This document shows, one piece after another, positions 1 to 492 of a DNA stretch of 8,654 bases. The position numbers were made by a program, and so were the translations under genes. The notes beneath the pieces were generated by a model, which did not search any database, was not told the DNA's origin, and saw only the letters and a program-made list of their open reading frames with translations. Numbering within the stretch: the stretch's first letter is position 1; every line of letters begins with the position of its first letter. The stretch covers positions 1 to 8,654 of the forward strand of contig CATYZV010000061.1 of the NCBI GenBank assembly GCA_958415865.1, given 5' to 3'. This DNA is from an uncultured Selenomonadaceae bacterium. GTDB lineage: Bacteria > Bacillota > Negativicutes > Selenomonadales > Selenomonadaceae.

Positions 1-273
1 TTGTACTTACAGTTGTTCAATTAAGTGGAGCAAGGCATTTCGAAGTGAGCTGTCAAACTGATAAAGCCGATAGATATGGCTTAAAGAAATTCCATCCATA
101 TATTCTTCTAAATTATCGTTTTTTTTAAGACCTATACCATAGCCGCTTAACCGATAATAATTAACTCTCTTTAAAATTGAAATGGCAATATCTGAATCAG
201 TAATTATGAGATTATGAACATGTATCAGGCGATCAATTTGCTGATCGTAAGTGAGAGCAGGCTTTAGTTTCAT
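1..273 (-). pseudogene. AbiF/Abi_2-family abortive infection protein, N-terminal part, stopped by TAA at codon 89
   Basis: The frame gives 88 residues from ATG at 273 to TAA at 7-9. Its layout fits the Abi_2 (AbiD/AbiF) N-terminus: KPALTYDQQIDRL (residues 4-16), then LKRVNYYRLSGY (34-45), then a DGISLSHIYRLYQFD segment (60-74) and the LR helix ending LIEQL. Known members are roughly 300 residues and carry a HEPN RNase motif (R-x4-6-H) in the second half, which is absent here. The next in-frame codons after the stop, to the window edge, are GTA CAA. A Glu is common at the stop position in the family, so a single GAA-to-TAA change could explain it (inference). The start is set by GGAGG at 279-283, 5 nt upstream; the in-frame ATG at 285 overlaps that site and is unlikely. 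GC is about 33%, well below the arg genes. The call of broken gene is likely but needs sequence beyond base 1. Confidence 0.72.
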
Positions 274-278
274 CAAAA

Positions 279-283
279 CCTCC
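279..283 (-). promoter_or_regulatory. Ribosome-binding site of the AbiF-like gene
   Basis: GGAGG on the minus strand, 5 nt before ATG at 273. It fixes the start at 273 and lies only 2 nt after the U-run that ends the leader RNA hairpin, so translation of the gene needs transcription to pass that hairpin. Confidence 0.8.
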
Positions 284-285
284 AT

Positions 286-343
286 AAAAAAGTCCCACCG
301 TGGTCCGCAGTACGTTTCCGCCTTATGCGTGGTGGGCTCTGTC
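286..343 (-). ncRNA. Structured leader RNA of the AbiF-like gene (candidate abiF RNA)
   Basis: Read on the minus strand from about 343, the RNA folds into one tiered hairpin. The outer stem CCCACC (336-331) pairs with GGUGGG (299-294). The middle stem CGCA (329-326) pairs with UGCG (309-306). The inner CG (320-319) pairs with CG (314-313) around a GAAA tetraloop (318-315). An A, a C and then six U (291-286) follow the outer stem, like an intrinsic terminator. The RNA sits between a good promoter and the RBS of an Abi_2-family gene. A conserved 'abiF RNA' motif is known upstream of such genes, and position and shape suggest this is one; I could not run the covariance model. Alternatives are an attenuator or simply a leader terminator. 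The exact 5' end is inferred from the -10 box. Confidence 0.68.
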
Positions 344-349
344 AATAAT

Positions 350-377
350 ATTATAGCAAAAATCCTGCTAAAAGCAA
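350..377 (-). promoter_or_regulatory. Promoter of the leader RNA and AbiF-like gene
   Basis: The -10 box TATAAT lies at 355-350, preceded by TG at 358-357 (extended -10). A TTGCTT -35 lies at 377-372 with a 16-nt spacer. Initiation is expected near 343-342, just before the hairpin. It has the same TGC-TATAAT core as the argC promoter, and it is isolated from the arg operon by the terminator at 432-475. Confidence 0.75.
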
Positions 378-384
378 GATTTTT
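358..384. promoter_or_regulatory. 27-bp near-perfect dyad over the -35 region (candidate operator)
   Basis: The left arm 358-369 (AAAAATCCTGCT) and the right arm 373-384 (AGCAAGATTTTT) are reverse complements at 11 of 12 positions, around a 3-nt AAA centre (370-372). The dyad covers the -35 box and most of the spacer of the promoter reading leftwards, a usual place for a repressor site. An RNA hairpin or weak terminator is possible but the arms are AT-rich. No regulator gene is visible here. Confidence 0.55.
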
Positions 385-431: not shown

Positions 432-475
432 AAAAAACCTCCTGCAAGCCGAGTAATCGGTGCAGGAGGTTTTTT
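432..475. terminator. Bidirectional intrinsic terminator after argH
   Basis: A6-CCTCCTGCA (432-446) pairs perfectly with TGCAGGAGG-T6 (461-475), giving a GC-rich stem flanked by A and T runs on both sides, so it can work on either strand. Inside the loop, CCGA (449-452) pairs with TCGG (457-460) around GTAA. It lies 17 nt after the argH stop and separates the operon from the accessory promoter. Confidence 0.93.
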
Positions 476-492
476 ATGCTTGAATAATTAAA

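What the first reader, a model, noticed from the sequence alone, without database searches (positions are those of the whole stretch)
1..384. RNA-plus-AbiF locus: structured small RNA placed directly before an Abi_2-family (HEPN) gene
Dyad, promoter, about 58-nt tiered hairpin RNA with U6 tail, RBS and an AbiF-like N-terminus follow each other within 384 bases. Seen directly: the stems, the promoter hexamers and the protein motifs. Known: Abi_2/AbiF proteins act in phage abortive infection, and a conserved abiF RNA motif precedes many such genes; AbiF-type HEPN proteins have been discussed as relatives of Cas13. Inferred: the RNA controls or guides the protein, as in RNA-antitoxin systems. The function of this RNA is poorly understood, so another natural copy is of value.
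Basis: partly seen in the sequence, partly recalled or inferred. Interest (0 to 1): 0.75.

Follow-up and report, generated by a model that had tools for sequence, protein, structure and literature searches.

The report
AbiF antitoxin RNA outliving its toxin
Beside a set of arginine-making genes lies a small folded RNA of a kind predicted to hold a bacterial RNA-cutting toxin (AbiF) in check; its own toxin gene stops early here, and related RNAs occur in many phage records without any AbiF gene, where they would likely disarm that defence.

Summary
A 59-nt RNA (345-287, minus strand) with stacked helices and a U tract precedes an Abi_2 start, and near-identical RNAs precede intact Abi_2/AbiF genes elsewhere. 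Rfam's abiF model (RF03085) does not find it even at E<=10. It shares the abiF core (outer stem, bulged A, CGC/GCG inner stem, [G/U]ACCA bulge) but has a hairpin-bearing 18-nt tip instead of the 11-nt loop, so I file it as a variant of abiF RNA.

(1) The window's toxin gene stops after 88 codons, before the RNxxxH motif of relatives, while the RNA is 58 of 59 identical to a copy beside an intact toxin. (2) Such RNAs often stand alone: of 8 genomes reached by RNA alone, 7 have no Abi_2 gene; of 135 IMG/VR records and 10 named phage records carrying such sequences, 11 and 0 have one.

Best explanation: an AbiF RNA antitoxin whose toxin gene has decayed. Most novel reading, untested: solitary AbiF RNAs serve immunity or phage counter-defence. 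AbiF RNA antitoxins, and a few phage abiF RNAs, are already in print.

The parts
287..345 (-). AbiF-type RNA, expanded-tip variant; predicted transcript about 343 to 286
   Evidence: R1 match 92.5 bits (the window is one of the six sequences R1 was built from); conserved before Abi_2 genes; fold
350..355 (-). -10 box TATAAT, preceded by TG; the -35 is weak
   Evidence: sequence; the consensus scan finds no promoter
331..336 (-). outer stem, 5' side CCCACC
   Evidence: one of its six pairs changes C-G to U-A in 3 of 12 aligned sequences
294..299 (-). outer stem, 3' side GGUGGG
   Evidence: pairs with 336-331
337..340 (-). lower stem AGAG, pairs with CUUU at 292-289
   Evidence: fold; one of 12 sequences breaks one pair
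326..329 (-). inner stem CGCA, pairs with UGCG at 309-306
   Evidence: invariant in the 12 aligned sequences, so it neither supports nor speaks against pairing
312..321 (-). tip hairpin GCG-GAAA-CGU inside the enlarged apical loop
   Evidence: one pair changes on both sides in 4 of 12 sequences
300..305 (-). single-stranded 3' bulge GACCAC
   Evidence: ACCA invariant in the 12 sequences; a bulge of AbiFr is reported to inhibit the RNase (PMC12737573 passages); that it is the same bulge is my inference
286..291 (-). U6 tract, presumed terminator end of the RNA
   Evidence: sequence; the terminator scan does not report it, as its loop limit is shorter than this structure
279..283 (-). ribosome-binding site GGAGG
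   Evidence: sequence
7..273 (-). Abi_2/AbiF toxin gene cut short: 88 codons then stop at 9-7
   Evidence: Pfam Abi_2 5.1e-12 over profile 2-54 of 184; intact relatives 295-321 residues

Best explanation
The locus carries a variant AbiF-type RNA that likely acts as the antitoxin of an adjacent Abi_2/HEPN toxin gene, which here stops after 88 codons and so is predicted to make no active toxin. In an intact copy the RNA would be made from its own promoter, would mostly end at its own U tract so that little toxin mRNA is made, and would bind the AbiF dimer and block its RNase site (inferred from the published C. difficile RCd22-AbiF pair and the PbAbiF complex). Shown here: the RNA, its conserved fold, its place before intact AbiF genes elsewhere, the early stop, and copies without a toxin gene. 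Inferred: expression, binding and neutralisation. With its toxin gene broken, the RNA left in the window is either a relic or a trans-acting guard against AbiF brought in by mobile elements.
For: Same RNA before Abi_2 frames in L001-L005, of which L001, L003, L004 and L005 are full length. Conserved pairing: 99.5% of 203 cells paired, 7 cells changed on both sides against a shuffled mean of 1.7. Relative's protein matches the solved AbiF 8vz6 at 4.1e-23. Core shared with RF03085, which is found before relatives L012 and L017 and which R1 also matches there. Early stop, with full-length homologues up to 85% identical over the window's 87 residues. Other broken or toxin-less copies. Published neutralisation of AbiF by its RNA in cis and in trans (PMC12373285, abstract and sections).
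Against: No experiment on this RNA. No Rfam match. No consensus promoter or terminator in the scan. RCd22 has two motifs and a separate terminator; this RNA has one motif whose stem would itself be the terminator. Two of five covariation measures do not exceed shuffles (pairs with double change 2 against 1.4; further pair types 7 against 7.4). The inner stem never varies. The stop lies six bases from the contig end, where assembly errors are common, though the 88-residue protein is listed for 2 contigs.
Confidence: 0.7

Rival explanations
1. The locus is an ordinary intact AbiF system and the stop is a sequencing or assembly error at the contig end.
For: Stop six bases from the end of the window; intact close homologues exist.
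Against: The same 88-residue protein is listed for 2 contigs, though these may come from the same data. Broken copies also occur inside longer contigs (L002; P0142, 64 residues, longest contig 185,754 bases).
Confidence: 0.2
2. The RNA is only a cis leader that limits toxin transcription by ending it early, without acting on the protein.
For: It sits between promoter and gene and ends in a U tract; in C. difficile the leader lowers expression of the gene behind it (PMC12373285 passages).
Against: A plain terminator needs no conserved bulge, bulged A and inner stem. Copies without a gene to control are common. RCd22 also works in trans (abstract).
Confidence: 0.1
3. Toxin-less copies, the window's included, are relics without function.
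For: L090 and L098 keep scraps of an AbiF start, which shows recent loss.
Against: RNA 57 of 57 identical in two pairs of toxin-less loci whose flanks on one or both sides are at chance level; two pairs only, and a recent move of the unit would look alike. Solitary copies in viral contigs keep the outer stem by covariation.
Confidence: 0.35
4. The RNA is a guide that directs AbiF to targets, as in Cas13.
For: Cas13 is reported to descend from AbiF (PMC12737573 and PMC12948488 passages).
Against: No variable guide segment in 12 aligned copies; a review says AbiF lacks RNA-targeting specificity.
Confidence: 0.03

Closest known systems
Rfam RF03085, abiF RNA
   Same: Outer stem, bulged A, three-pair inner stem, six-nt 3' bulge, place before Abi_2 genes
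   Different: Apical part is 18 nt with a hairpin instead of 11 nt unpaired; no match by the Rfam model at E<=10
RCd22-AbiFCd of C. difficile (PMC12373285)
   Same: RNA before an Abi_2 gene, with a promoter upstream and terminator-like end
   Different: RCd22 carries two canonical motifs in about 100-130 nt; here one variant motif in about 58 nt and a toxin gene cut short
PbAbiF-AbiFr complex, PDB 8vz6
   Same: The protein of relative L001 matches it at 4.1e-23 over residues 16-292
Pseudo-ToxI of phage phiTE (PMC3475682, passages)
   Same: Phage-borne mimic of an RNA antitoxin; the model for the decoy reading of solitary copies
   Different: ToxI is a repeat-array pseudoknot of another toxin family; its function was shown, here it is inferred
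RNA anti-CRISPRs, Racrs (PMC10651486) and rAcrVIA1 (named in PMC12948488)
   Same: Solitary phage RNAs that copy the RNA partner of a defence nuclease; rAcrVIA1 is reported to act on Cas13
   Different: They act on CRISPR-Cas; the Racr survey is said to lack type VI (passage)
abiF RNA of cyanophage S-CREM1 (PMC9964418)
   Same: abiF RNA in a phage genome, already in print, with three further phages in Rfam
   Different: Canonical form found by Rfam; section 3.5 does not link it to neutralising AbiF

Membership tests
Rfam RF03085 abiF RNA | Covariance-model score at or above the gathering score of 37 bits | tested here: not met
   No match in the window at E<=10; none at L001, L003, L004, L005 at E<=5
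Rfam RF03085 abiF RNA | Outer six-pair stem, bulged A, three-pair inner stem, six-nt 3' bulge | tested here: met
   Fold and 12-sequence alignment set against the RF03085 consensus printed
Rfam RF03085 abiF RNA | Unpaired apical loop of 11 nt | tested here: not met
   18 nt between CGC and GCG with a GAAA-capped hairpin
Rfam RF03085 abiF RNA | Place directly before an Abi_2 gene | tested here: met
   Pfam Abi_2 5.1e-12 for the frame at 273-7
AbiF RNA-antitoxin system (type III-like) | Full-length Abi_2/HEPN toxin with the RNxxxH motif | tested here: not met
   88 codons only; the motif is at residues 210-215 of 298 in relative L001
AbiF RNA-antitoxin system (type III-like) | RNA made as a short transcript that ends before the gene | tested here: inconclusive
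   TATAAT and U tract seen, but the scan finds neither promoter nor terminator
AbiF RNA-antitoxin system (type III-like) | RNA binds and neutralises the toxin | not testable with these tools
Phage RNA decoy of a defence system (pseudo-ToxI or Racr kind), for the solitary copies | RNA partner of a defence nuclease in a phage without the nuclease gene | tested here: met
   Abi_2 in 8 of 51, 1 of 44 and 2 of 50 records searched whole
Phage RNA decoy of a defence system (pseudo-ToxI or Racr kind), for the solitary copies | Protects the phage from the defence | not testable with these tools
   No infection data for phages with and without the RNA

The most novel reading that the evidence does not exclude
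Solitary AbiF RNAs are a widespread class of RNA inhibitor: phages carry a toxin-less AbiF antitoxin RNA to switch off host AbiF, and bacteria that lost AbiF keep the RNA as protection against incoming AbiF modules. The window is a cellular copy on that path, and its expanded, variable tip is a specificity or stability element that the current RNA model misses.
Probability: 0.4. Interest if true: 0.85.

Novelty: new variant of a known kind. Interest (0 to 1): 0.62.

Why it matters
AbiF is described as the ancestor of Cas13. If its RNA antitoxin circulates alone in phages and chromosomes, AbiF defence has a ready-made RNA counter-measure, parallel to pseudo-ToxI and RNA anti-CRISPRs, and isolated phages that hold such sequences (for example Bacillus phages Grass and SBSphiJ) would make it directly testable. 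The expanded-tip form also means that a census of abiF RNA based on the Rfam model alone misses copies.

Tried and rejected
Rfam abiF scan of the window: negative. Guide-RNA reading: no variable segment in 12 aligned copies. The idea that the sk1 region said to protect phage 712 from AbiF (a title seen in a reference list) is an abiF RNA: no match in sk1 or 712 by Rfam at E<=5 or R1 at E<=10. The idea that Silviavirus has the RNA and Kayvirus lacks it, which would have fitted PMC12791408: rejected, both hold a homologous stretch, and neither model finds an abiF RNA in it (Rfam at E<=1 on Stau2; R1 at E<=5 on Stau2, G1 and Romulus). Pattern hits dropped as chance matches: L026 (12 bits over part of R1), L032 and L033 (inside frames), L082, L083, L086, L088 (GC-rich coding sequence; R1 finds none of the last three at E<=1 and gives L082 18.8 bits). 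L038 dropped as a second copy of phage phiLdb. Plasmid records: no DNA match to the window RNA at E<=0.01. Weinberg et al. 2017 (recalled) is not held; the Cas13-origin paper did not appear in a search for words of its title and is known here only through papers that cite it.

Full report
WHAT IS THERE. The window is 8654 bases, the same length as the longest contig listed for its own protein, so it is probably a whole contig. The genes I read lie on the minus strand: argC, argJ, argB, argD, argF, argG and argH (argH is confirmed by Pfam, the other names are my reading of the translations). After argH come an inverted repeat that looks like a terminator (about 434-477, seen in the alignment), a dyad (358-384), a TATAAT box (355-350), the RNA (345-287), GGAGG (283-279) and an ATG at 273. 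The frame matches Pfam Abi_2 (5.1e-12, profile 2-54 of 184) and ends at 9-7 after 88 codons. The host is thus probably an uncultured member of or near Selenomonadaceae.

THE RNA IS REAL. A search of one genome per species with the Abi_2 fragment gave 16 loci. In L001-L005 the 59 nt before the gene are 54 to 58 of 59 identical to the window; L006 has the last 24 nt at a contig edge. The protein is only 57-69% identical over the same loci. The fold is an outer stem CCCACC/GGUGGG with a lower AGAG/CUUU extension, a bulged A, an inner stem CGCA/UGCG, a tip hairpin with a GAAA loop, and a 3' bulge GACCAC. In 12 expanded-tip sequences 99.5% of 203 cells are paired; seven cells are changed on both sides against 1.7 in shuffles (0 of 500 as high), and the covariation score is 0.164 against 0.102 (0 of 500). 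Sliding the partners gives 26-49% paired. Two of five measures do not exceed their shuffles: pairs with a double change 2 against 1.4 (233 of 500 as high), further pair types 7 against 7.4 (450 of 500). The inner stem never varies. A further copy not in that alignment, L098, has CCCUCC opposite GGAGGG in the outer stem, but four positions of the structure unpaired.

RELATION TO abiF RNA. Rfam finds nothing abiF-like in the window at E<=10, nor at L001, L003, L004 or L005 at E<=5. It does find RF03085 at L012 (49.4 bits) and, below the gathering score of 37, at L017 (35.2), both before Abi_2 genes reached by the window's protein. R1, built from the window and L001-L005, matches L012 and L017 at 33 and 29 bits. 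The shared core is the outer stem, the bulged A, the CGC/GCG inner stem and the bulge; the difference is the tip, 11 nt unpaired in Rfam and 18 nt with a hairpin here. Tips vary elsewhere too: of 40 distinct tips 31 are 13 nt or longer, with a mean folding z of -1.29 and 21 of 31 below -1. In that set the stems were imposed by the search patterns but the tips were free. Expanded tips also stand before full-length AbiF in the viral contigs L031, L055, L066 and L067. Other relatives (L007-L011 and L014; L013 and L016) have leaders of other forms, seen and not analysed.

THE TOXIN GENE IS BROKEN HERE AND ELSEWHERE. Full-length relatives have about 295-321 residues, with RNICAH at 210-215 of 298 in L001. 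L001's protein matches the solved AbiF 8vz6 at 4.1e-23. Full-length homologues reach 85% identity over the window's 87 residues (P0108). Among 16 cellular loci with the expanded class, AbiF is full length in 4 (L001, L003, L004, L005), broken or partial in 4 (window, L002, L006, L098) and not found in the 1.0-1.5 kb held downstream in 8 (L029, L030, L090, L091, L092, L097, L099, L100). Seven of the 16 (window, L001-L006) were the query or were reached by protein, which favours copies with AbiF. L093 (27.5 bits; with AbiF) was left out as it is not clearly of this class. Of the 8 genomes reached by RNA searches only (G264, G369, G402, G407, G408, G409, G680, G690), 7 have no Abi_2 match in a whole-genome search and G407 has one; in G690 my own profile still sees a 43-residue piece. 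One further genome with a pattern match (G254, L026) was dropped as chance. The expanded class is rare: with up to 2 mismatches its tip pattern was found in G001, G264 and G369 among 391 Clostridia genomes, plus that chance match. No completeness is given for these genomes, so absence is not proof.

SOLITARY RNAs IN PHAGES. Two gapped patterns found 33 and 22 stretches in IMG/VR. After dropping four chance matches and one duplicate and adding phage phiLdb, 51 records were searched whole for Abi_2: 8 of 51 have it. Of 115 new loci from it, 85 records were searched whole: 1 of 35 (its match has stops inside) and 2 of 50; 30 (L164-L193) were not. My own profile on the held DNA of all 115 finds the same three, L133, L150 and L206. 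In total 11 of 135 IMG/VR records have Abi_2, and 0 of 10 named phage records (phiLdb; Stau2, Grass, SBSphiJ, phiSHEF4, SNW-1, Javan129, dArtagnan, G1, Romulus). Some records are near-duplicates, many are fragments, and IMG/VR includes prophages. The named ones differ in support: R1 finds phiLdb (34 bits), Grass (22.6) and SBSphiJ (17.2) and none of the other seven at E<=5, apart from a 9.7-bit match elsewhere in Javan129. Rfam, run on eight of the ten, gives SNW-1, phiSHEF4 and Javan129 30-33 bits, below the gathering score, and nothing for phiLdb, Stau2, Grass, SBSphiJ and dArtagnan at E<=1. Stau2, G1, Romulus and dArtagnan thus rest on a shared or related core and my reading of the fold only. 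Among the viral contigs put to both models, Rfam passes L065 (40.8 bits) and misses L034 and L058, while R1 gives L034 58.7 and L058 32.2 bits.

The core pattern leaves the outer stem free, which makes it an independent test. Of 100 distinct copies, 80 have an uninterrupted outer helix of at least 5 pairs, against a shuffled mean of 14.7 and a maximum of 24 in 500 shuffles; without the 13 copies reached in other ways it is 70 of 87 (no shuffles run). Copies that fail include Stau2, SNW-1 and Javan129. Some copies sit among phage tRNA genes: L058 between tRNA-Trp and tRNA-Tyr, L065 beside tRNA-Ser, and Grass. As a contrast, RF03085 gave 25 loci in 21 of 391 Clostridia genomes, and 15 of 25 have AbiF in the held DNA, one of them in two pieces. 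Against 3 of 85 the exact test gives p = 1.7e-9, but the two counts were made in different ways, 10 of 25 bacterial loci lack AbiF too, and phages rarely carry AbiF anyway.

IS THE SOLITARY RNA KEPT? L097 and L099 agree at 57 of 57 RNA bases and 35 of 40 in the promoter region, and at about chance level beyond on both sides. L029 and L030 agree at 57 of 57 in the RNA and at about chance level downstream, while the upstream side is similar, as in orthologous places. This fits selection on promoter plus RNA, but also a recent move of the unit; two pairs are few.

AGAINST THE DECOY READING. Among canonical-core copies, those next to AbiF have G or U at the first bulge position in 12 of 12, viral copies without AbiF have C in 56 of 89 and G or U in 32 of 89. 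The viral bulge is thus often different in what may be the inhibitory element; this could be tuning to other AbiF proteins, or another function. No infection data were available. PMC12791408 (a conference abstract, whole text) suggests that abiF acts on Kayvirus-like and not on Silviavirus-like phages. Both hold a homologous stretch after a similar promoter; Kayvirus G1 reads AGC/GCU where Stau2 reads CGC/GCG, with a different tip. So presence alone does not explain that report, and no model calls either an abiF RNA.

PRIOR WORK. PMC12373285 (abstract, section 12, first part of section 13, passages) shows RCd22 as an RNA antitoxin of AbiF. PMC12737573 (passages) describes PbAbiF-AbiFr and inhibitory bulge nucleotides. 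PMC9964418 (passages and section 3.5) already reports an abiF RNA in cyanophage S-CREM1 and three phages in Rfam, without tying it to neutralising AbiF. PMC3475682 (passages) is the pseudo-ToxI precedent; PMC10651486 (listing and two passages) and rAcrVIA1 (a passage of PMC12948488) are the RNA anti-CRISPR precedents. I found no statement of the solitary-AbiF-RNA idea in the listings or the passages opened, which cover open-licence papers only. The original motif paper and the Cas13-origin paper could not be read and may say more.

VERDICT. The feature is real and is a structural variant of a known RNA-antitoxin kind, with a toxin gene cut short in this copy. The wider pattern of toxin-less copies is the part worth following.

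Noticed in passing
L107, L229, L230 (phages Stau2, G1, Romulus): Staphylococcus Twort-like phages share an intergenic stretch with an abiF-like core after a strong promoter; 249 phage records match it. Kayvirus and Silviavirus forms differ in inner stem and tip; neither R1 nor Rfam (Stau2) calls it abiF.
   Followed up: partly
L114-L228, bulge after the inner stem: Viral copies without AbiF often have C at the first bulge position (56 of 89), copies next to AbiF have G or U (12 of 12).
   Followed up: partly
G003 (L096, L099, L100): One Spirochaetales draft genome holds three copies of the RNA, one with intact AbiF and two without.
   Followed up: partly
L018, 11902-11960: The expanded-tip RNA lies near the end of a prophage contig, before a 61-residue frame instead of AbiF; the whole 32-kb record has no Abi_2.
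   Followed up: partly
L007-L011, L014; L013, L016: Other Abi_2 relatives have structured-looking leaders of two further forms before the gene.
   Followed up: no
window 358-384: A dyad overlaps the weak -35 region of the RNA's promoter; I see no such dyad in the upstream stretches of L001-L005.
   Followed up: no
window 434-477: A long inverted repeat with A and T runs between argH and the RNA looks like a terminator that would work in both directions (alignment).
   Followed up: no
L008, 5191-5271: A c-di-GMP-I riboswitch lies near another Abi_2 gene (44 bits).
   Followed up: no
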